From positions 1 to 64,000 of the IMG/VR virus record IMGVR_UViG_3300035211_000050: 64,000 nucleotides of DNA, one strand, 5' to 3'. Numbering within the stretch: the first letter of the stretch is position 1; each line of letters begins with the position of its first letter. The stretch comes from a virus. The translations under genes and the position numbers were made by a program. The notes under the pieces are model-generated. The model was given only the letters and a program-made list of their open reading frames with translations, ran no database searches and had not been told where the DNA came from. Of the stretch, positions 383 to 37,172 are shown in pieces.

Positions 383-899
383 TAACACCCACTGTTATAG
401 GATCTTCAATTTGCTTAATACCATTTTCAGATTCATTGCAAGGTATAAATTTTATTGGTTCTTCATCTGGAGCCGTTTGTGTACTAGCTATTGATTCTTC
501 TATTGCAGCGATCTCGGCATCAAGTTCCTCATCAGTCTTAGTTTTGTAAGTCATGTCGATATCTATTTTGTCGGTTGGTTTATAACCTGTTCTATCTAGC
601 ACATCCTTAACTGCACCAAGCTTAACTGAGGCTGGAATTTTTCCTTTAGGATCAAGTAAAGTCTTAAGAGTTTTTAGGGCATCTTTGTTCATTGAGACAA
701 GTTCTCTACGAACATCAATTGTGACTTCCTTAACTTTGTCAGATAAGCCATCTAGATAGGCTTTGCCAAGCGGAGAGGTTAATACATTTGTAATGGTCTG
801 CACATGAATATCTAGTTGCTCAGCTATTTCTTGTCTTGAGAAGCCATTAAAGGCAAGTTGTATAATATTCCTATGTTGAGCCTTTAACTCTTTAAGCAT
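375..899 (-). CDS. Terminase small subunit-like protein
   Basis: 174 residues. The N-terminus (about residues 8-45, FSRQEIAEQLDIHVQTITNV) is a clear helix-turn-helix, the DNA-recognition part of small terminases. The middle (KLGAVKDVLDRTGY) resembles the oligomerisation helix often found after it in such proteins, and the C-terminus is acidic. Position directly upstream of, and overlapping, the large subunit supports the call. AGGAAA lies 9 bases before the start. Probably recognises the packaging site. Confidence 0.75.
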   Translation of the reverse strand: MLKELKAQHRNIIQLAFNGFSRQEIAEQLDIHVQTITNVLTSPLGKAYLDGLSDKVKEVTIDVRRELVSMNKDALKTLKTLLDPKGKIPASVKLGAVKDVLDRTGYKPTDKIDIDMTYKTKTDEELDAEIAAIEESIASTQTAPDEEPIKFIPCNESENGIKQIEDPITVGVNE

Positions 900-944
900 G
901 ATCTACATTTCCTGTGTGATTAGAAAGTTTAATAGTTATAGCCG

Positions 945-973
945 ATTGTCTCATATTATAATAGTCTTGTCAA
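945..973 (-). promoter_or_regulatory. Possible sigma-70 promoter for terminase genes
   Basis: On the minus strand TTGACA is followed after 17 bases by GACAAT, a weak -10; a TATAAT lies between them at the wrong spacing. Upstream of the terminase small subunit. Tentative. Confidence 0.3.
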
Positions 974-1115
974 GCTTTTTCTGGGGCGTCAAATGCCTTT
1001 TTTAGGATTTTATAGTGGCATAATGCCGTATTTGAACTTTGGGCCGGTTATATAATTTGAAAGGCTGCTTAATTTATGGCTGGCCAAACTCATGATAAGT
1101 GAAATGAATTATGAT

Positions 1116-1130
1116 GCCTGACTAATCATC
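1116..1130 (+). repeat. 15-bp direct repeat GCCTGACTAATCATC, copy 1
   Basis: Exact 15-base repeat with a second copy at 1584-1598; a partial third, GCCTGATTAGTGA, starts near 1495. The copies bracket the sigma-54-like promoter cluster, so they may bind its activator or a repressor. Confidence 0.6.
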
Positions 1131-1148
1131 CCCATGCCTGGCTTGCTT

Positions 1149-1162
1149 GTTCATTTATGAAC
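1149..1162. repeat. GTTCA-N4-TGAAC palindrome, copy 1
   Basis: GTTCATTTATGAAC, one of seven copies of a 14-base palindrome in the window. This one is in the control region, 250 bases from the terminase start. Confidence 0.7.
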
Positions 1163-1369
1163 GGTGATTTTGTATGTTTGGCAATTAGTTGGTTGTTTAC
1201 AGTTGTCACTTAAAATGGTTTTATTCCACAGCTGTATATAGACAACCTGCTTTCCATATATGGAATCGAGGCATCGACTTATGGCAAGTTCTGTCCAGTT
1301 GATAATTGTTCCCTATACCATACTATATGGCCTTGCAAAAATTTTCATTTTCTCAAACATGGCGGCATA

Positions 1370-1385
1370 TGGCATGATTATTGCA
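1370..1385 (+). promoter_or_regulatory. Sigma-54-like promoter 1
   Basis: TGGCAT-N5-TTGCA matches the -24/-12 sigma-54 consensus (TGGCAC-N5-TTGCW) with the required GG-to-GC spacing. First of four in tandem. Confidence 0.5.
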
Positions 1386-1395
1386 TCTATTCAAT

Positions 1396-1411
1396 TGGCA
1401 TAGTCCTTGCA
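1396..1411 (+). promoter_or_regulatory. Sigma-54-like promoter 2
   Basis: TGGCAT-N5-TTGCA, 26 bases after the first element and with correct -24/-12 spacing. Confidence 0.5.
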
Positions 1412-1431
1412 TAACTAACCACAATTGGTAT

Positions 1432-1447
1432 TGCAAAGATCATGCCA
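1432..1447 (-). promoter_or_regulatory. Sigma-54-like element on minus strand
   Basis: On the minus strand TGGCAT-N5-TTGCA, again with exact spacing. It would fire toward the terminase genes. A weaker minus-strand version, AGGCAT-N5-TTGCC, lies at 1483-1498. Confidence 0.4.
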
Positions 1448-1453
1448 AGGCAT
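1442..1453. repeat. Inverted repeat ATGCC-AA-GGCAT
   Basis: Perfect 5-bp arms with a 2-base centre, overlapping the minus-strand sigma-54-like element. An operator-like dyad between promoters 2 and 3. Confidence 0.45.
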
Positions 1454-1464
1454 ATAACAATTAA

Positions 1465-1480
1465 TGGCACACATCTTGCA
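1465..1480 (+). promoter_or_regulatory. Sigma-54-like promoter 3
   Basis: TGGCAC-N5-TTGCA is a full match to the consensus core, followed by an A. Confidence 0.55.
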
Positions 1481-1535
1481 ATGGCAATAATCATGCCTGA
1501 TTAGTGAGAATCCTAATAGGCAAGCCGACACGGTT

Positions 1536-1551
1536 TGGCACACTTCTTGCA
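1536..1551 (+). promoter_or_regulatory. Sigma-54-like promoter 4
   Basis: TGGCAC-N5-TTGCA, full match to the consensus core. The spacer (ACTTC) is almost the same as that of promoter 3 (ACATC). Confidence 0.55.
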
Positions 1552-1583
1552 ATCCTTATTCTATACACCGGCAACGCCGTACG

Positions 1584-1598
1584 GCCTGACTAATCATC
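1584..1598 (+). repeat. 15-bp direct repeat GCCTGACTAATCATC, copy 2
   Basis: Exact second copy of 1116-1130. It directly follows the palindrome GCCGTACGGC (1576-1585), with which it shares two bases. Confidence 0.6.
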
Positions 1599-1705
1599 TC
1601 AAGCTGAATAATTCTTTAAGTGATTAAGAATTCATGCGTCAATCCGATTGATTAATCTAATAATTTCAGGTATTTAAAAAAGTTTAAAAATAAATAGAAA
1701 AATGG

Positions 1706-1734
1706 TTGACAAACGTTTTTGAATGATTTATTAT
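1706..1734 (+). promoter_or_regulatory. Strong sigma-70 promoter
   Basis: TTGACA, a 17-base spacer, then TATTAT. A perfect -35, ideal spacing and one mismatch in the -10. Transcription would start near 1741, just ahead of the paired GACGGTTAGGCCG boxes, and run into the small membrane gene at 1827 and the gene at 2020. Confidence 0.75.
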
Positions 1735-1746
1735 TTCTCATACCAT

Positions 1747-1785
1747 GACGGTTAGGCCGTTCAAACGGTTTGGACGGTTAGGCCG
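1747..1785 (+). promoter_or_regulatory. Paired operator-like repeats at the transcription start
   Basis: The 13-base word GACGGTTAGGCCG occurs at 1747-1759 and 1773-1785, a 26-base period. A third ACGGTT lies between them at 1765. Position just past the predicted start of the 1706 promoter suits a repressor or road-block site. Confidence 0.6.
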
Positions 1786-1826
1786 GTTAAAAGACTTTTA
1801 ACAAACTTTAATTAGGAAATGAAAAA

Positions 1827-1949
1827 ATGAGAAAGAAAATAATTTTTATTCTAAAAACAATTAGTCATTTCATTTTAGCGCTTAATTTATGTTTTATCAC
1901 AGCATTCATTATCTGTTGTGTTTATTGTATAATATCAATTTGGTTATAA
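1827..1949 (+). CDS. Small membrane protein, 40 aa
   Basis: Starts at ATG 1827 with AGGAA 8 bases upstream. The product is almost wholly hydrophobic after a short basic N-terminus (MRKK), giving one or two membrane helices with paired cysteines (IICCVYC). First gene behind the 1706 promoter. Function not recognised. Confidence 0.5.
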   Translation: MRKKIIFILKTISHFILALNLCFITAFIICCVYCIISIWL

Positions 1950-2001
1950 TGAATAAAAGCATTATGTTTTAACGGCCTGACGTAATCAGGATAACTTTAA
2001 A

Positions 2002-2019
2002 GATGAAAGGAGTTTCATC
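2002..2019 (+). promoter_or_regulatory. Shine-Dalgarno in a perfect hairpin loop
   Basis: GATGAAA-GGAG-TTTCATC: a 7-bp perfect stem with the ribosome-binding GGAG as its 4-base loop, ending one base before the ATG at 2020. Similar hairpins precede the starts at 11335, 18194 and 19198. Confidence 0.55.
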
Positions 2020-2430
2020 ATGGCAAAATCAATTTATGAAGTACTTGACAGTATGGTCACAGAGACAAGCGTTCCGGCAATCGGCAAAATGGTAGAACAT
2101 ACAATTCCTAGAGATCTTCTACCTACCAGCGCCGAGTTTGAAAATGAAGAAAAATTGCTTGATTGGGCACAGGCTAATGGTGTCCTTCATGCCTGTCTGC
2201 AAAGTGGAGTCCAGAAACGCCTTATTGACCTTAGAGCCAAATTTAAGGCCGTCAAGAAGGACGAGGAGTGGACAGTGGAAATGGGTCAAAAGGCCGTTGA
2301 TGAGTCAACATGGGATATCGTCAAGCGTCCAAAGGTTGCCAAATCTGACGAGGACATTGCTATGGAATACCTTGCCAGCCTGTCTGAAAAGGACCGTGAA
2401 AAATTTCTTGCTTCCATGAGCGCTGAATAA
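2020..2430 (+). CDS. Hypothetical protein with shared C-terminal tail, 136 aa
   Basis: Function not recognised. Soluble and charged, with less AT-rich codon use than the small genes to its right. The last 30 residues (SDEDIAMEYLASLSEKDREK) follow a pattern also found at the ends of the proteins at 7692, 17212 and 30803: an Ala/Leu helix, a short break, then a charged helix. First sizeable gene behind the 1706 promoter and probably well translated, given its hairpin-loop ribosome site. Confidence 0.75.
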   Translation: MAKSIYEVLDSMVTETSVPAIGKMVEHTIPRDLLPTSAEFENEEKLLDWAQANGVLHACLQSGVQKRLIDLRAKFKAVKKDEEWTVEMGQKAVDESTWDIVKRPKVAKSDEDIAMEYLASLSEKDREKFLASMSAE

Positions 2431-2927: not shown

Positions 2928-2980
2928 TGTGTATGCATGTTGACGTAAACATTAGTACCCCCCCTTTTCTGGTTGGAAAA
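2928..2980 (+). repeat. Left arm of 53-bp inverted repeat
   Basis: Pairs with 3114-3166 on the opposite strand: 42 of 53 positions agree by eye. It contains ATGTTGACGTAAACAT, a one-mismatch copy of the perfect palindrome in the right arm. Confidence 0.7.
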
Positions 2981-3113
2981 CACATACACCTATATTAGTA
3001 TAAAAATATATTGACTATATATATCTAATTAATTCACAGCTAGAACCAATTACAAGCTATATATATCTACTATATTCTATCAATATATAATCTCTCTAAT
3101 ATCCCTGTACTAA

Positions 3114-3166
3114 TTTTCCAGCCAGGTAAAGGGTAGCCCTAATGTTTACGTAAACATCTATACACA
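3114..3166 (-). repeat. Right arm of 53-bp inverted repeat
   Basis: Contains the perfect 16-base palindrome ATGTTTACGTAAACAT (3142-3157). The 133-base spacer between the arms (2981-3113) is very AT-rich, with many TATATA runs, like a DNA-unwinding element. A related but degenerate ATGTTTACACGTACAC occurs at 4077. Confidence 0.7.
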
Positions 3167-14983: not shown

Positions 14984-16537
14984 ATGATAAAATATAAAGG
15001 AAAAATTCTCACAGGTGAACAGGAAGCCCATATAAATACTATCATATCAACTAATCAAGACTTTGCAATCCAAGCACCTCCGGGTTCTGGCAAGACTTTT
15101 CTTCTATTAGCTCTAGCTAGAAAATTAAAAGGCTATGGGCTATCAATATCTTTCAATAAAATCTTGGCAGACGAAGCCAGTGGGAAGTTTTGTAATTCAG
15201 TAACAGCTAAAACTGGTCATGCTCTTGCTTATGGTGAAGTAGGCTATAAATATAAAAGCAAGTTACGCAAATTAACAGGAAAACACCTTGCGGATACAGA
15301 GGATATCGGCGACTGGCAACCTTATAACACGCCAGCAAACAAGGGATACTTAATCCTAAATACAATACGCAAATATTGTTATTCGGCAGACAAAGAAATT
15401 GATATTCAGCATGTTCCAAAGCTTACAATTCTGAATGAAGAAAATCTTGATCTGATGAAAGAAGATTTAATAAGTCATTCAAAAGTAATCTTTAAAAAAA
15501 TGGCTAACTTATCTAATGATCTGCCAATAACTCATGATATTTACTTAAAATTATGGGCACTTCGCAATCCGATCTTAAAAAAGGATTATATCTTTTTTGA
15601 TGAATACCAAGACAGCAATCCAGTTATTGCGAATGTAATCAAAGCTCAACAATGCCAAAAGATTTTTGTAGGTGATCAATTTCAACAAATCTATAGCTGG
15701 CGAGGTGCAGTAAATGCACTTAAAGACAAGTCATTGGACATGTTATACATTACACAATCTTTCCGATTTGGTCAATCCATAGCAGACATGGCTAACAAGA
15801 TTATTACCAGCTATTATCCAACTGATTTTCATTATGTTCCATTTCATGGAAATCCAGAAGTTGAGTCAACTGTGTCATATGACCATAAAGAAGTCGATTG
15901 TATCATTTGTAGGACAAATAAAACAGTAATATCTGAAACCATTAAAATGCTATCTTCAGACAAAGAGGTTTATATTCTCGGAGGTACTTCACAGCTTGAA
16001 TATCTCATAGACTCTATTCATCGCTTAAAGATTCAAGGCTATTCCAATCATCCAGACCTATTCCTTTTTAGCAGTTATGCCGATATGAAGGAATATGCCG
16101 ATTCGCCCATGGGCGGAGATTTGAAACCGATCTTAAAGTTAATAGATACATATAGTAGGGAACGCTTACTTAATATTTTAAGCTCAACTGCGCAAGATGC
16201 TTCAAAAGCTGACATAACTGTCACTACTTGCCATAAAGCAAAAGGTTTAGAATGGCCAAGAGTTAGGCTGGCAAATGATTTTAAATCTCCAAGTGAAGAT
16301 GGTATTCCATCAACTGAGGAAACCAACATTCTTTACGTAGCCGCATCCAGAGCATTGCATAATCTTGATTTAAGCTATTGTAATGCCTGTCAGCCAGAGA
16401 TATTAGAAAAGGCTCGCAAATTGAATGAAGAACAATATTTGATTGATCAGAAAGTTTCAGAACAATTTAAAATGAAAGCAAGTGATATTGCATTATTACA
16501 AAAGAAACTTGTTTTTGATAATGATCTGCCATCTTAA
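14984..16537 (+). CDS. UvrD/Rep-like SF1 DNA helicase, 517 aa
   Basis: ATP-dependent 3-5 helicase for replication or recombination. Walker A is APPGSGKTF (residues 31-39); motif II is FFDEYQDSNP; motif III is GDQFQQIYSWRGA; a VTTCHKAKGLEWPRV motif V and LYVAASRAL motif VI complete the set. It is shorter than bacterial UvrD because the accessory subdomains are reduced. Followed closely by the HD protein gene. Confidence 0.85.
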   Translation: MIKYKGKILTGEQEAHINTIISTNQDFAIQAPPGSGKTFLLLALARKLKGYGLSISFNKILADEASGKFCNSVTAKTGHALAYGEVGYKYKSKLRKLTGKHLADTEDIGDWQPYNTPANKGYLILNTIRKYCYSADKEIDIQHVPKLTILNEENLDLMKEDLISHSKVIFKKMANLSNDLPITHDIYLKLWALRNPILKKDYIFFDEYQDSNPVIANVIKAQQCQKIFVGDQFQQIYSWRGAVNALKDKSLDMLYITQSFRFGQSIADMANKIITSYYPTDFHYVPFHGNPEVESTVSYDHKEVDCIICRTNKTVISETIKMLSSDKEVYILGGTSQLEYLIDSIHRLKIQGYSNHPDLFLFSSYADMKEYADSPMGGDLKPILKLIDTYSRERLLNILSSTAQDASKADITVTTCHKAKGLEWPRVRLANDFKSPSEDGIPSTEETNILYVAASRALHNLDLSYCNACQPEILEKARKLNEEQYLIDQKVSEQFKMKASDIALLQKKLVFDNDLPS

Positions 16538-16549
16538 CAAGGAGCCAAT

Positions 16550-16993
16550 ATGTTTGACAAATTAATCAATGTTAAAGACGATTTCAATAATGCTTTTACT
16601 ATTGCAGTCTTTGCACATTTGGACCAAAAAGACAAGGCAGGAATGCCATACATTTTACATCCAATAAGAATTTTCAACCAAGTCCATACAAATAAATCAA
16701 AAATAGCAGCACTTCTTCATGATGTCATTAAAGATTCTATTTTAACGCTTGAAAAATTAAAGCCTTACTTTTCTGAAGATATTATTGAAGCTTTAGATGC
16801 TCTTACAAGACGAAAAGGAGAAGAATATCAGGATTATTTAGCCAGAGTTAAAGAAAATGCACTTGCAATGAAGATAAAATATTTTGATTTGAAACATAAT
16901 CTAAATCCTGAAAGATTAAAACAACTAAAACTTTCTACAAGAGTCAGACTTAATAGGAAATATGACGAGGCTCTAAAATATCTATTAAGTTAA
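16550..16993 (+). CDS. MESH1/SpoT-like HD phosphohydrolase, 147 aa
   Basis: Resembles small alarmone hydrolases that remove the 3-prime pyrophosphate of (p)ppGpp. Visible ligands: H23 (FAHLDQ), H37 (HPIRIF), H57-D58 (LLHDV) and D113 with KHN. The glutamate of the usual HDxxED catalytic motif is replaced by lysine (HDVIKD, residues 57-62), so activity may be altered or lost. It may alter the starvation signal or bind rather than cleave a nucleotide. TAACAAGGAG upstream. Confidence 0.7.
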   Translation: MFDKLINVKDDFNNAFTIAVFAHLDQKDKAGMPYILHPIRIFNQVHTNKSKIAALLHDVIKDSILTLEKLKPYFSEDIIEALDALTRRKGEEYQDYLARVKENALAMKIKYFDLKHNLNPERLKQLKLSTRVRLNRKYDEALKYLLS

Positions 16994-17044
16994 CCTTTTA
17001 AGATAAAGCCTGCCTCAAAATAAATAAAATATTTTAAAAAGTTG

Positions 17045-17073
17045 TTGACAAAAGCCGTAAAAAAAGCTATATT
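17045..17073 (+). promoter_or_regulatory. Sigma-70 promoter upstream of 17212
   Basis: TTGACA, 17 bases, TATATT. The transcript would have a leader of about 130 bases containing an extra AAAGGAG followed by a short open frame; possible leader control. Confidence 0.7.
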
Positions 17074-17211
17074 TGTCCGGTTATATATACAAAAGGAGTG
17101 TTTTTAAGGCAAATTGATTTGGTTATTTTTAGTTTGGGCATCGTGTCCATTTAGCGCGCTGATAGGATTCAGCATATTATTAACTTTTTTATTTTTTAAA
17201 GGAGATAGCTT

Positions 17212-17601
17212 ATGAGTCAAATTAAAGTCGTTTCAAATGCAGCAGGCAGGGAAATTTCAATAGATGAGCCGGTAGTTCTAGGACTCACAACTATTGAGGA
17301 TCTTGTCGAATCACTCGGCGAAGATCTTGCAGTAAACATGATCAAGAATCAGCTCAAAGTATCTTTCAGAGCCGTCATTCGAAGGAAGCTTGAAGAAAAA
17401 GACGACAATGAAGAATTTGCTAATAGCGATGAAGCCATTCTTGCCGATGATTATTCTGACTGGAAACCTACCCTGAGAGTTACCAAATCTGCCGAGGAAA
17501 AAGCAATGGAAGCTCTTGGAAATCTGCCGCCTGACGTCAGAGAGGCCGTTCTGGCAAACTTTGCAAATTCAGAAAATGATGCTGAGGAGATCGAGGAATA
17601 A
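17212..17601 (+). CDS. Hypothetical protein with shared C-terminal tail, 129 aa
   Basis: Acidic soluble protein. The end (EKAMEALGNLPPDVREAVLA) is nearly the same as that of the 117-aa protein at 7692 and similar to those at 2020 and 30803. Own strong promoter and AAAGGAGA site, and relatively GC-rich codons, all suggesting high expression. Function unknown. Confidence 0.75.
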   Translation: MSQIKVVSNAAGREISIDEPVVLGLTTIEDLVESLGEDLAVNMIKNQLKVSFRAVIRRKLEEKDDNEEFANSDEAILADDYSDWKPTLRVTKSAEEKAMEALGNLPPDVREAVLANFANSENDAEEIEE

Positions 17602-17620
17602 TCTCCAGACCTGGGAGGGT

Positions 17621-17650
17621 ATGTCTTTATATTTCCTGATGTAAAGACAT
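17621..17650 (+). terminator. Stem-loop after 17601
   Basis: ATGTCTTTA pairs perfectly with TAAAGACAT across a 12-base loop, 19 bases past the stop. Followed by A-rich, not U-rich, sequence; may end or stabilise the transcript. Confidence 0.45.
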
Positions 17651-17683
17651 TAAAAAAATACTGGAACATATGATAGAGCGATT

Positions 17684-17907
17684 ATAACATGGTACCCAGT
17701 CCTAACAGCTAATCTTATGTTGGTTTTAAACCAGGTAGCCAGATATACCTGACTCTGGCAAATCAAATAATAAGCTCCTGCGATTATAAAAGATTGCCAC
17801 TTACCAAAAGGCTCAAAGGAGCTTATTATTTTAACTAAGTGAGTATGACCAGAGGTAAGTGTACTGCGCAGTGGCCACTTTAACGCAAGGCGTGACGTCA
17901 TACTCAC
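17684..17907 (+). ncRNA. Candidate structured RNA with two branched domains
   Basis: Domain 1: 15-bp perfect stem 17765-17779 with 17817-17831, enclosing a GCGAT/ATTGC hairpin and a CC-AAAA-GG hairpin. Domain 2: 11-bp perfect stem 17839-17849 with 17897-17907, enclosing AAGTG/CACTT around the palindrome ACTGCGCAGT and an ACGC-AAG-GCGT hairpin. Upstream, 17732-17737 can pair with 17746-17751 while 17738-17743 can pair with 17754-17759: interleaved stems that must either alternate or form a pseudoknot. No tRNA T-loop or acceptor stem is present. Strand and function are inferred from the direction of neighbouring genes; a DNA role (origin, recombination site) is possible. Confidence 0.5.
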
Positions 17908-17930
17908 ATTATTTTTAAGGAAGGAGTGTT

Positions 17931-18173
17931 ATGCCAGATATCGAAGAAAGAATAAAAGATATTATAAGTTATTTCTTTCAAGTACCAAAAGAGAATCTTT
18001 TCTTAACAACATCTTTTATTATTGATCTTGGAGCAGATTCTTTTGATCTTATTGAAATTGCTATGGAAATAGAAGAAGAATATGATATTTCCATTCCTAA
18101 TCCTGATGAATTCTCTATAATTGAAGACCTCATAAAATTCATTAATAAAGAAATAGCTCGTCCCAGCAAATAA
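17931..18173 (+). CDS. acpP: Acyl carrier protein, 80 aa
   Basis: Carries acyl chains on a phosphopantetheine arm. The DLGADSFDLIE motif places the modified serine at residue 37, as in bacterial AcpP (Ser36). Length and acidic helical composition are typical. No other fatty-acid gene is nearby, so it would depend on the host synthase. It may redirect host lipid metabolism or recruit host ACP partners. AAGGAGTG upstream; directly follows the structured segment. Confidence 0.85.
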   Translation: MPDIEERIKDIISYFFQVPKENLFLTTSFIIDLGADSFDLIEIAMEIEEEYDISIPNPDEFSIIEDLIKFINKEIARPSK

Positions 18174-18175
18174 TT

Positions 18176-18196
18176 TTTGAAAGGAATTTTCAAATG
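18176..18196 (+). promoter_or_regulatory. Shine-Dalgarno in a perfect hairpin loop, copy A
   Basis: TTTGAAA-GGAAT-TTTCAAA then ATG: a 7-bp stem with the ribosome site in the loop. The same 21 bases occur before the next gene, at 19180-19200. Confidence 0.6.
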
Positions 18197-19171
18197 GATT
18201 ATAGAAAGAAAATAGATTATTCATCCCTGTCAACTTACATGTCTTGTCCAAGAGAATTCCTCTTTCAATATGTTATGAATCTCCGGCCTTTAGGACAATC
18301 CATCCATTTAGTATTCGGTTCCTGCTGGCATTACGGCCTTGAAGTAACTTACAATCTACTTAAAGAAAATCCAAAATTAACATCATTAGACTGTGCTATA
18401 AGTTCTATCAAAGCTTTCAACGCTTTATGGGAATTAGACGGCGCTCCATTTTGGAAAAATGAAGATATAATATTTCCAAAATCTCCAGGCCATGCAGCAA
18501 ATATGTATAAAGCCTATTGGGATAGATTCTTAAAGCATGATATAGAACAACATTCAATCATCGGTGTAGAAGTTCCATTTGCAATTGATTTATCTTTATA
18601 TGAAAAAGGTCTTCCTAATTATACAGGTAAAATCGATTTAATATTATCCAATGGTGCTAATGGAATAGATATTATAGATCACAAAACAGCTAAAGCCATA
18701 TATAAAACCAGCCCACAAACATATGAAATGTCTTTCCAGTCAGATGGTTATCTAACTGCCGGCAGAATCTACTATGATAAAATTCCATCAATTACTTATC
18801 GGATAGCCCTCTGTCAAAAATCAAAGATTGACTTTCATCCAATTATTGTTAATAAACGAGCTGCAGCAATTGATCACTTCTTAAATAATCTGATTCATTA
18901 TAGTAAAGAGATTTATAATAATCTAAATTTATTTGAGGAAGATAAGATAGCCTGCAAAGATCGTAAAGATATTTTAAAATCATTTCCTCGCTGTCCGGGA
19001 TATTCATGCACAACATTCAGCACTGTCTGTGCTTATCATGATTTATGTGTCTTACGAAATAATCCATTACTTTGGATTGATCGGGCGCCCCAAGGATTTC
19101 ATTTTGATGAGTGGGACCCTGACAAAGTAGATGCAAAAACAAAGAAAAGATTAGCAGAGGTATTAAAATAA
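18194..19171 (+). CDS. Cas4/RecB-like PD-(D/E)XK nuclease, 325 aa
   Basis: Exonuclease of the family used by phages with Sak4-type recombinases. SYSSLSTYMSCPREFLF gives the N-terminal cysteine (C18). The active site is GKIDLIL plus DIIDHKTAKA (D162, K164), followed by an FQSDGYL motif. A C-terminal cluster (CPGYSCTTFSTVCAYHDLC) completes a probable 4Fe-4S site. Likely resects DNA ends for annealing with the ATPase at 21018. No CRISPR context. Confidence 0.8.
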   Translation: MDYRKKIDYSSLSTYMSCPREFLFQYVMNLRPLGQSIHLVFGSCWHYGLEVTYNLLKENPKLTSLDCAISSIKAFNALWELDGAPFWKNEDIIFPKSPGHAANMYKAYWDRFLKHDIEQHSIIGVEVPFAIDLSLYEKGLPNYTGKIDLILSNGANGIDIIDHKTAKAIYKTSPQTYEMSFQSDGYLTAGRIYYDKIPSITYRIALCQKSKIDFHPIIVNKRAAAIDHFLNNLIHYSKEIYNNLNLFEEDKIACKDRKDILKSFPRCPGYSCTTFSTVCAYHDLCVLRNNPLLWIDRAPQGFHFDEWDPDKVDAKTKKRLAEVLK

Positions 19172-34634: not shown

Positions 34635-37172
34635 ATGATCATACCTAAAATTAGTACCACATCAAAATCAAAGAAAGAAGAGAAAAGTTCATTTAATGCC
34701 TTAGCAATTGAATGTCCACCAACTGATAATATAAGTACTGCAATGATTGCTATGGTAGGTGAGGCACCATCTGATATTGAATTAGTAAAACAAGAACCTT
34801 TCGTAGGTCCAGCAGGATCTCAACTCAATCGTATATGTGCAGCATGTAGAATTGCTCGTTATCAAATCTATATGACAAATGCCTGTAAAGCAAAGCTACC
34901 TAAAAATGATGCAAACAAATTATGGACTACTAAAGGATATAGGCATCCCGATTGGGGAACCTTACAGAATCGATTAATAGATGAACTTGCTGAATTCCCA
35001 GGCAAGGTAATAATGCTTCTTGGTGCCACAGCTATGAAGTTATTAATTGACGAACCAAGGTTTGATTCCATAACTAAGTATCGCGGATCATTCTATCCAG
35101 CTGAAAACTTTCCACATCTTAAAGAGAAGTTAGCAGGAAAAATTATTGGCTTGTCATATCATCCAGAATACACCCAAGCATATAAACATCCAATTCATTT
35201 CTATACAATGATTGCGGATTTTCAAAAAGCATTAAAAATTATTGAAAATCCAGAACTTCTTAAAGATAATGTAGACATCAAAATCAATCCAAGTCTCGAT
35301 GACATTTTAAAATTTTACGCAGAAATTTCTACAAAAGAATTTGTTGGCTATGATATTGAAGCCACGCCAGAATTTATTACATGCTTTTCCTTGGCATTTT
35401 ATGATGCGATTACTGATAGAATAAAATCTATGTCAATACCATTATTAAATAACCAAGGTAGTATGTGGTCAGTTGAAGAAGAATTAAAAATATGGGCTGG
35501 CCTGGCTAAGATATTAGAAGATCCAAAGATAAAAATTATCTGTCAGAATGGAATGTTTGATATCATGTATACTTTACGAACTATGAATATCAAAACAGAT
35601 AACTTTTATTTCGATACTATGCTTGCCCAACATAGATGTTATACAGAACTTCCAAAAGGTTTAGATTATCTTACCTCAACATATACTTATTATCCATACT
35701 ATAAAGATGAAGGTAAATTATCCCACCTTAAAATTATTAAAGACTGGCCACAGTATTGGACATACAATGCTAAGGATGCCGCATATCTCTTACCTATCTC
35801 AGAAGCTTTAATGAAAGAACTTGAAGAATTTGAATCTGCAGATGCCATGACATATATGATGGACTTGCATAAACCATTAATGGAAATGGAATATAATGGC
35901 ATCTTAACAGATCCAAAAGGCATAAAGGATTGCAAGAAAAAATATGAAAAGTTTATAATAGCATTACAGCATGGTCTTAATAAATTAGCAAATAAAGAAC
36001 TTAATACAAATTCATCTAAACAAATGATTGCCTATTTTTATGGTACTTTAATGATAAAGCCATACATAAATCGAGCAACAGGCAATGCCACTTGTAACGC
36101 CGTAGCTCTACATCGTATTGCCAAGAAAGGAATTAAAGGATCTGGTGAAGCAAAAATAATTATTAAAATGCGAAAGTATGGAAAACTTTTATCTACTTAC
36201 TTTAATGTAGCTGTAGATGCAGATAATAGATTACGTTGTAGTCATAAGATTACTGGAACAGTTTCTGGAAGAATAGCTACTGAAGGAACATTCTTTGGAA
36301 CAGGAACAAATCTTCAAAACCAGCCTTATATCTTTAAATATTATCTTATCGCAGATCCTGACTGGATATTATGTGAAGCCGATCTTGCTAAAGCTGAAGC
36401 TCATGTAGTTGCATATCTTACACAAGATGCAAACATGATAGAATCATTTGAATCGGGTGTAGATGTCCATTCATTTAATGCTAGTAAGATTTTTAATGTT
36501 CCTATTGAAGAAGTCATTCATGAGGCTAAAACAAAGAAAGTTGATCAAAGAAGTACTATGCGTTATATGGGAAAGAAAGTTGTCCACGCCTCGAATTATA
36601 ATATGGGAGCACAAACATTTTCAGATCAATTAGCTGTTGAAGAAGTCTTTATTTCCCAATCAGAATGTAAACAATTACTTCAAAATTATCAGGATAGATT
36701 TCCCGGCCTAAAAAGATGGCATCAATCAATTGAAAATGAAGTTTCACAATCCAGAATATTATATAATTTATTTAACTCTCCAAGAAGATTCCTTGGCGAG
36801 ATGGGACCAGCATTATTTCGTAATGCTTATAGCTATAAACCTCAATCAACTGTAGCAGAATTATTAAATCGTGGACTTATTAAAATGGCTAATGATCCCA
36901 GGCTTGGCAAAGATGGCTATGATATTCGATTATTAACAACTGTTCATGATTCAGTATTATTTATGTTTCACAAAAGTAAACTTCCACAATTACTTCAAAT
37001 ACTTCTCATCATTAAAGATCATATGACTCATACATTTACTTATAAAGGTAGATCTTTTACCATTGGATTAGATGCCAAGATTGGCACTCAATGGGCAGGC
37101 AATACAGCAGAAATTGCAAAGTTTACCAAAAATAATATTGATATGGCTATTAAAAAGATTGGAGTTTTATAA
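34635..37172 (+). CDS. Uracil-DNA glycosylase / family A DNA polymerase fusion, 845 aa
   Basis: Replicative polymerase. Residues 35-200 form a family 4-like uracil glycosylase domain (VGEAPSDIEL, EPFVGPAGSQL at 54-64, LSYHPEYT near 175). The 3-5 exonuclease starts at VGYDIEAT (D240, E242). Polymerase motif A is EADLAKAEAHVV (D583, E587) and motif C VHDS (771-773, Ser in place of the usual Glu). Fusion of glycosylase-like and polymerase domains is known in SPO1-type phages; whether the glycosylase is active cannot be told. Confidence 0.85.
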   Translation: MIIPKISTTSKSKKEEKSSFNALAIECPPTDNISTAMIAMVGEAPSDIELVKQEPFVGPAGSQLNRICAACRIARYQIYMTNACKAKLPKNDANKLWTTKGYRHPDWGTLQNRLIDELAEFPGKVIMLLGATAMKLLIDEPRFDSITKYRGSFYPAENFPHLKEKLAGKIIGLSYHPEYTQAYKHPIHFYTMIADFQKALKIIENPELLKDNVDIKINPSLDDILKFYAEISTKEFVGYDIEATPEFITCFSLAFYDAITDRIKSMSIPLLNNQGSMWSVEEELKIWAGLAKILEDPKIKIICQNGMFDIMYTLRTMNIKTDNFYFDTMLAQHRCYTELPKGLDYLTSTYTYYPYYKDEGKLSHLKIIKDWPQYWTYNAKDAAYLLPISEALMKELEEFESADAMTYMMDLHKPLMEMEYNGILTDPKGIKDCKKKYEKFIIALQHGLNKLANKELNTNSSKQMIAYFYGTLMIKPYINRATGNATCNAVALHRIAKKGIKGSGEAKIIIKMRKYGKLLSTYFNVAVDADNRLRCSHKITGTVSGRIATEGTFFGTGTNLQNQPYIFKYYLIADPDWILCEADLAKAEAHVVAYLTQDANMIESFESGVDVHSFNASKIFNVPIEEVIHEAKTKKVDQRSTMRYMGKKVVHASNYNMGAQTFSDQLAVEEVFISQSECKQLLQNYQDRFPGLKRWHQSIENEVSQSRILYNLFNSPRRFLGEMGPALFRNAYSYKPQSTVAELLNRGLIKMANDPRLGKDGYDIRLLTTVHDSVLFMFHKSKLPQLLQILLIIKDHMTHTFTYKGRSFTIGLDAKIGTQWAGNTAEIAKFTKNNIDMAIKKIGVL

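What the first reader, a model, noticed from the sequence alone, without database searches (positions are those of the whole stretch)
17602..17930. Unexplained highly structured non-coding segment before the acyl carrier protein gene
Two adjacent branched domains closed by perfect stems of 15 and 11 bp, each with internal hairpins, preceded by interleaved 6-bp stems (17732-17737 with 17746-17751; 17738-17743 with 17754-17759) that can alternate or form a pseudoknot. No tRNA or known phage RNA features were recognised. It could be a regulatory RNA, a leader switch for the acyl carrier protein and nuclease operon, or a DNA structure such as an origin or recombination site.
Basis: partly seen in the sequence, partly recalled or inferred. 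Interest (0 to 1): 0.65.

Follow-up and report, generated by a model that had tools for sequence, protein, structure and literature searches.

The report
New pseudoknotted RNA module in phages
The segment is a genuine structured phage RNA whose core, a previously undescribed pseudoknotted motif of about 100 bases, also occurs in unrelated viruses with matching base-pair changes; it sits in a gene gap where related phages swap in different folded RNAs, and its exact job is still unknown.

Summary
Window 17602-17930 is non-coding, matches no Rfam family and folds far better than shuffles (z about -5 to -6). Its 15-bp stem exceeds every one of 500 shuffles (longest 12).

The important part is 17657-17759. 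But CAGGTA pairs with 17659-17664 (P1), and the P2 loop kisses GTTGG at 17719-17723. The same fold was found in two viruses of the window's lineage and in two viruses sharing no clear homology at the locus. Six pairs change on both sides, and sliding the pairing by one column drops cells paired from 98.8% to 44%.

In one lineage the motif is a clean present/absent cassette between near-identical flanks. All surveyed relatives carry some folded element in the same slot: simple hairpins, stems of 14-15 bp, a cloverleaf, or tRNA-Leu-like RNAs without a normal anticodon arm. Most have a sigma-70-like promoter before the upstream gene.

Best reading: an exchangeable intercistronic RNA module that separates the 129-aa gene's message from the downstream nuclease operon. 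An ACP-specific switch is not supported. Function is inferred, not shown. It is a new RNA family, but with only five sequences from four lineages.

The parts
17045..17073 (+). sigma-70-like promoter TTGACA-17-TATATT upstream of the 129-aa gene; the transcript should run through the gene into the segment
   Evidence: 11 of 12 consensus matches; comparable promoters lie about 100-185 nt upstream of the gene in most relatives
17212..17601 (+). 129-aa orphan protein gene that always precedes the RNA slot
   Evidence: homologues in all relatives; no Pfam or PHROG family; AF2 pLDDT 86, no fold match
17621..17650 (+). 5' hairpin of 13 pairs (ATGTCTTTATATT/GATGTAAAGACAT, with wobble)
   Evidence: MFE and centroid; no homologue to test it
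17657..17759 (+). conserved pseudoknotted RNA motif: AUACYGRAAC-[apical helix]-GUUGGUNUUAAAYCRGGUA-[P2 5']-AUA-N-CCURACUC-[P2 3']
   Evidence: homologues in L016, L017, L107, L111; model scores 76-96 bits against a next best of 18 in 535 kb; covariation
17659..17664 (+). P1 5' strand UACUGG, pairs with 17731-17737 (CCAGGUA, one G bulged)
   Evidence: two pairs with double-sided change (U-A/C-G, G-C/A-U), 100% paired in 5 sequences
17668..17718 (+). apical helix P3 with symmetric internal loops
   Evidence: fold; similar internal loops in L111 by eye (AGCgaTTAtaAC..GTccTAAcaGCT against CGCgaTTAaaAC..GTccTAAtaGCG); shorter in L016, L017 and L107
17719..17723 (+). GUUGG, pairs with the P2 loop CCUGAC (17748-17753): kissing pseudoknot
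   Evidence: pairs in all 5 sequences, one U-A to U-G change
17738..17759 (+). P2 hairpin GCCAGA/UCUGGC (17738-43:17754-59)
   Evidence: four of six pairs with double-sided change
17765..17831 (+). domain 2, closed by a perfect 15-bp stem, with inner hairpins
   Evidence: exceeds all 500 shuffles; 14-15 bp perfect stems of unrelated sequence in the same slot of L003, L069, L073, L092
17839..17907 (+). domain 3, closed by a perfect 11-bp stem, ending 23 nt before the ACP start codon
17798..17861 (+). possible 8-bp loop-loop pairing between domains 2 and 3: CACUUACC 17798-17805 with GGUAAGUG 17854-17861
   Evidence: complementary; 1.2% of loop shuffles do as well; no homologue to test it
17931..18173 (+). 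acyl carrier protein gene directly downstream (window-specific)
   Evidence: Pfam PF00550; PHROG acyl carrier protein; not found in relatives
18194..19171 (+). PD-(D/E)XK exonuclease gene, the conserved downstream neighbour of the slot
   Evidence: Pfam PF12705; present after the slot in all relatives

Best explanation
The segment is the folded intercistronic part of a phage transcript that starts upstream of a 129-aa gene. Its core (17657-17759) is a new structured RNA motif: a stem P1 with an apical helix, an adjacent hairpin P2, and a kissing pseudoknot between the P2 loop and the P1 inner loop. Two further stem-closed domains follow. The motif behaves as a discrete cassette, present or absent in near-identical phages and shared with unrelated viruses. 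Most likely it works as RNA, as one of several exchangeable, very stable modules placed between the 129-aa gene and the downstream nuclease operon. There it would separate the two messages as a barrier or processing site and stabilise the upstream 3' end, possibly by binding a protein. Shown: the fold, its conservation, its modularity and its position. Inferred: transcription, and the punctuation/stability role.
For: Covariation: 98.8% of cells paired, six pairs with double-sided change, score 0.412 against a shuffled mean of 0.156 (0/500 reach it); slid by one column at most 44% paired. The P1 5' strand, P2 and the pseudoknot 3' strand were not part of the pattern that found L107 and L111. 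Unrelated hosts of the motif: L107 and L111 share no protein with the window at the locus beyond a 24%-identical DNA polymerase. Present/absent cassette: L017 against L010, L041, L012, with near-identical flanks on both sides. Slot: in all surveyed relatives the 129-aa to nuclease gap begins with a folded element, namely a hairpin (L002, L003, L091, L093), a 14-15 bp stem (L069, L073, L092), a cloverleaf element, or tRNA-like RNAs. A promoter lies upstream of the 129-aa gene in most relatives.
Against: Only five sequences in four lineages. No transcript data. Domains 2 and 3 have no homologues, so their pairing rests on thermodynamics and stem length. Slot z-scores of several relatives are weak (-0.7 to -2). 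The L111 copy has no unusual MFE (z about 0), though MFE cannot see the pseudoknot. Sharing between unrelated viruses could also mean a trans-acting RNA.
Confidence: 0.45

Rival explanations
1. A trans-acting non-coding RNA, processed from the transcript, of the kind of the large ornate phage RNAs GOLLD and ROOL, or a decoy of host RNA-binding factors.
For: Relatives place tRNA-like RNAs with rebuilt middles in the same slot. The motif moves between unrelated viruses with no constant downstream gene and can be lost with its flanks intact. In L107 it sits in a 380-nt gap followed by a 150-nt stem-closed domain.
Against: In L111, L016 and L017 the motif ends about 15 nt before a ribosome-binding site, which looks like a leader. 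There is no sign of a dedicated promoter or terminator around it.
Confidence: 0.25
2. A cis-acting translational operator of the T4 gene 32 type: a protein binds the leader pseudoknot and spreads over the ribosome-binding site of a replication gene.
For: L111: motif between the SSB-like gene and the DNA polymerase gene, just upstream of the polymerase ribosome-binding site. L016/L017: motif just upstream of the nuclease ribosome-binding site. T4 gp32 binds a 5' pseudoknot and then the unstructured sequence around the RBS (PMC535899).
Against: In the window 172 nt and two domains separate it from the ACP start. Near-identical phages have the same nuclease leader without the motif. DNA polymerase relatives of L111 lack it. 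The downstream genes differ.
Confidence: 0.18
3. A small self-cleaving ribozyme or a metabolite riboswitch.
For: Two covarying stems, a pseudoknot and strongly conserved joining nucleotides (AAC, NUUAAA, AUA, CURACUC) in unrelated contexts.
Against: No Rfam ribozyme or riboswitch matches. Gene context is inconsistent, which argues against a riboswitch. Cleavage cannot be tested here.
Confidence: 0.08
4. A DNA-level element (origin or recombination site), or a chance fold.
For: Inverted repeats; cassette-like gain and loss.
Against: Pairing is kept with G-U pairs, a bulge and a pseudoknot, as expected of RNA. A better origin candidate lies at 880-2020. The 15-bp stem is beyond 500 shuffles.
Confidence: 0.04

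Closest known systems
T4/RB69 gene 32 translational operator (leader RNA pseudoknot)
   Same: Pseudoknot in a phage replication-gene leader; in L111 next to an SSB-like gene and just upstream of an RBS
   Different: About 100 nt with P1, apical helix and kissing loop, against about 28 nt in T4; no constant downstream gene; in the window not adjacent to an RBS; no protein shown
GOLLD and ROOL large ornate phage RNAs
   Same: Phage-encoded, elaborate, function unknown; GOLLD sometimes has tRNAs embedded, and relatives here carry tRNA-like RNAs in the same slot
   Different: Much shorter, different sequence, no Rfam match, lies in a replication/nuclease region rather than a tRNA island
Small pseudoknotted ribozymes and riboswitches (pistol, preQ1 classes)
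   Same: Compact size, two stems plus a pseudoknot
   Different: Different order of elements and different conserved nucleotides (from memory); no covariance-model match
tRNA-punctuation processing sites and intercistronic stabilising hairpins
   Same: Position between two coding units; relatives use tRNA-like RNAs or plain hairpins there
   Different: The window has no tRNA-like part; processing not shown

Membership tests
Any Rfam 15 family | Covariance-model score at or above the gathering threshold | tested here: not met
   Window: no match; window segment, L111 and L107 at E up to 5: only chance-level hits of unrelated families; L107 and L111 whole loci: none
tRNA / tmRNA | Cloverleaf with D and T arms and anticodon, or tmRNA domain | tested here: not met
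   ARAGORN 0 genes in the window; RF00005 best window match 11.5 bits at 37013-37057
T4 gene 32 type operator | Pseudoknot upstream of an unstructured A/U-rich RBS region of the same gene | tested here: inconclusive
   Position fits L111, L016 and L017 but not the window, where two folded domains intervene
T4 gene 32 type operator | Binding and autogenous repression by the phage SSB | not testable with these tools
   Needs binding and reporter assays
GOLLD / ROOL | Match to the family covariance model, several hundred nt | tested here: not met
   No Rfam match; segment is 329 nt
Intrinsic terminator | GC-rich stem with small loop followed by a T run | tested here: not met
   Only three weak terminator-like sites in 16500-18300 (1.0 expected); the two in the segment do not use the full 15- or 11-bp closing stems as simple hairpins
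Self-cleaving ribozyme | Site-specific cleavage in Mg2+ | not testable with these tools
Riboswitch | Consistent downstream gene class | tested here: not met
   Downstream genes: ACP, exonuclease, DNA polymerase, hypothetical

The most novel reading that the evidence does not exclude
The slot is a hypervariable RNA locus of an uncultivated phage clade, in which an arms race or modular exchange swaps whole RNA domains (the new pseudoknot, tRNA-Leu-like RNAs without an anticodon arm, a cloverleaf), all acting in trans on one host target such as an RNA-targeting defence; the pseudoknot motif would then be a new class of mobile effector RNA.
Probability: 0.13. Interest if true: 0.88.

Novelty: new variant of a known kind. 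Interest (0 to 1): 0.58.

Why it matters
A new covariation-supported RNA motif, shared by unrelated phages and moving as a cassette, is a concrete object for biochemistry: transcripts of about 100 nt can be probed, tested for cleavage and used as bait. It also points to a locus where one phage clade exchanges structured RNAs, including tRNA-like RNAs without a normal anticodon arm. That could reveal how phages use RNA for message punctuation, regulation or counter-defence.

Tried and rejected
Known-RNA assignment: Rfam at gathering and permissive thresholds, ARAGORN, literature search for the core sequence: nothing. Similar DNA in cultured phages and plasmids: no usable match; the Klebsiella plasmid hit scored 15 bits with broken pairs. 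Motif upstream of DNA polymerases of L111's relatives: absent. Motif in 295 Bacteroidia-class and 395 Bacteroidota-phylum genomes: none, but without a positive control this shows little. A second pattern added no true member; its other hits look like coding or unrelated sequence. Function of the 129-aa protein by fold: no match. ACP-based search for close relatives: only 26-residue matches in unrelated 157-162 kb viruses. A cloverleaf count for element C was first entered with the wrong length, and one arm is still off register in the accepted count.

Full report
What was checked. The window is part of a 68.9-kb virus record. The segment 17602-17930 lies between a 129-aa gene (17212-17601) and genes for an acyl carrier protein (17931-18173) and a PD-(D/E)XK exonuclease (18194-19171). 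It has no Rfam or tRNA match and no similar DNA among cultured phages. The fold energy is 5.8 standard deviations below shuffles. The 15-bp stem exceeds the longest perfect stem in each of 500 shuffles (maximum 12).

Relatives. Searches with the nuclease, the 129-aa protein and the neighbouring AAA ATPase gave about 35 contigs of an uncultivated phage lineage with conserved order: UvrD-like helicase, 129-aa gene, variable slot, nuclease, ATPase. In all relatives examined the slot starts with a folded element, but the elements are not homologous to each other. They are simple hairpins (L002, L003, L091, L093), perfect 14-15 bp stems closing larger loops (L069, L073, L092; L003 also has 15 bp), a 90-nt cloverleaf element, and tRNA-Leu-like RNAs whose anticodon arm is replaced by unrelated structured sequence. 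The ACP gene is not in these relatives.

The conserved core. BLAST linked window 17710-17760 to L016 and L017, where a base pair is exchanged (TCCAGA/TCTGGA against GCCAGA/TCTGGC). A pattern search with GTTGGTNTTAAAYCNGGTA gave 20 viral contigs. Two of them, L107 (100-kb virus) and L111 (43-kb virus with a family-A DNA polymerase), also hold the rest of the motif. L107 and L111 share no protein with the window at the locus except a 24%-identical DNA polymerase. Aligning the five sequences shows AUACYGRAAC-[apical helix]-GUUGGUNUUAAAYCRGGUA-[P2]-AUA-N-CCURACUC-[P2'].

Structure. P1 pairs UACYGR with YCRGGUA (one bulged G). P2 is the hairpin directly after it. GUUGG pairs with CCURAC in the P2 loop. 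In the five sequences 98.8% of cells pair, six pairs change on both sides, and the covariation score is 0.412 against 0.156 for shuffles (0 of 500 as high). Sliding the pairing by one column gives at most 44% paired. The P1 5' strand, P2 and CCURAC were outside the search pattern, so their match is independent evidence. The invariance of the core between them is partly imposed by the pattern. A covariance model scores the five at 76-96 bits and the next best sequence at 18 bits in 535 kb.

Modularity and context. L017 and the near-identical L010, L041 and L012 have the same cloverleaf on one side and the same nuclease leader on the other, but only L017 holds the motif. So it is a discrete cassette that the nuclease gene does not need. 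In L111 it lies between the SSB-like gene and the DNA polymerase gene, ending shortly before the polymerase ribosome-binding site; relatives of that polymerase lack it. In L107 it lies in a 380-nt gap and is followed by a domain closed by a 9-bp stem, like domains 2 and 3 in the window. In the window, domains 2 and 3 separate it from the ACP gene. Their loops could pair over 8 bp (1.2% of shuffles), which cannot be tested without homologues.

Expression. A near-consensus sigma-70 promoter (17045-17073) lies upstream of the 129-aa gene, and similar promoters are found at about the same distance in most relatives. This predicts a transcript through the 129-aa gene into the segment. It is a prediction, not a measurement.

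Interpretation. What is shown: a real, conserved, pseudoknotted RNA fold; its occurrence in at least four viral lineages; its cassette-like gain or loss; and its placement in a slot that always holds some folded RNA. The simplest role that fits all relatives is intercistronic punctuation or 3'-end stabilisation, using whatever stable RNA is at hand. A trans-acting RNA, a T4 gene 32-like operator (PMC535899) and a ribozyme remain open. GOLLD and ROOL (PMC12286853) are the nearest precedents for elaborate phage RNAs of unknown function, but no family match exists. Because the downstream genes differ (ACP, exonuclease, DNA polymerase, hypothetical), a gene-specific riboswitch, including an ACP switch, is unlikely.

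Limits. There are five sequences, of which L016 and L017 are close relatives. Viral collection scans were exhausted. Scans of 295 Bacteroidia-class and 395 Bacteroidota-phylum genomes found nothing but have no positive control. Domains 2 and 3 and the 5' hairpin have no homologues.

Noticed in passing
L012:6465, L016:6373 and 7968, L018:3090, L022:6383 and 9723, L025:4569, L031:5474 and 10232, L041:5756 and 7247, L096, L104: tRNA-Leu-like RNAs with canonical acceptor, D and T arms but no encoded CCA, and 49-150 nt of unrelated structured sequence in place of the anticodon arm; some reach the Rfam tRNA threshold, ARAGORN does not see them.
   Followed up: partly
L017, L019, L020, L021, L073 and others, in the slot before the nuclease gene: A conserved cloverleaf-like element of about 90 nt (TGCCGG...TGCGCACCAT...GACG...AATCGGC), no Rfam match at gathering score; one arm has five pairs with double-sided change.
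   Followed up: partly
window 18170-18196 and the start of the nuclease gene in relatives: A small hairpin holding the ribosome-binding site just before the nuclease start codon (TTGAAAGGATTTTTCAA, GAGAGGATTTCTC, CATAAAGGATTTTTATG), kept with changed pairs in most relatives: likely translational control.
   Followed up: partly
window 880-2020: About 1.1 kb without clear genes, with repeated inverted copies of GGCATGATTATTGC (1370-1497); a candidate replication origin or control region.
   Followed up: no
window 2928-3166: Inverted repeat with 96-nt arms (71% complementary, 47 nt apart) in a gap: another large hairpin.
   Followed up: no
L123: A contig binned to a Bacteroidales MAG carries the same ATPase (78%) and nuclease region, with the tail of a tRNA-like element just before the nuclease; a weak hint at the host.
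   Followed up: no
window 16550-16993 and 17931-18173: An HD-type phosphohydrolase gene and the acyl carrier protein gene flank the region in the window but were not found at this locus in relatives: probable recent acquisitions.
   Followed up: no
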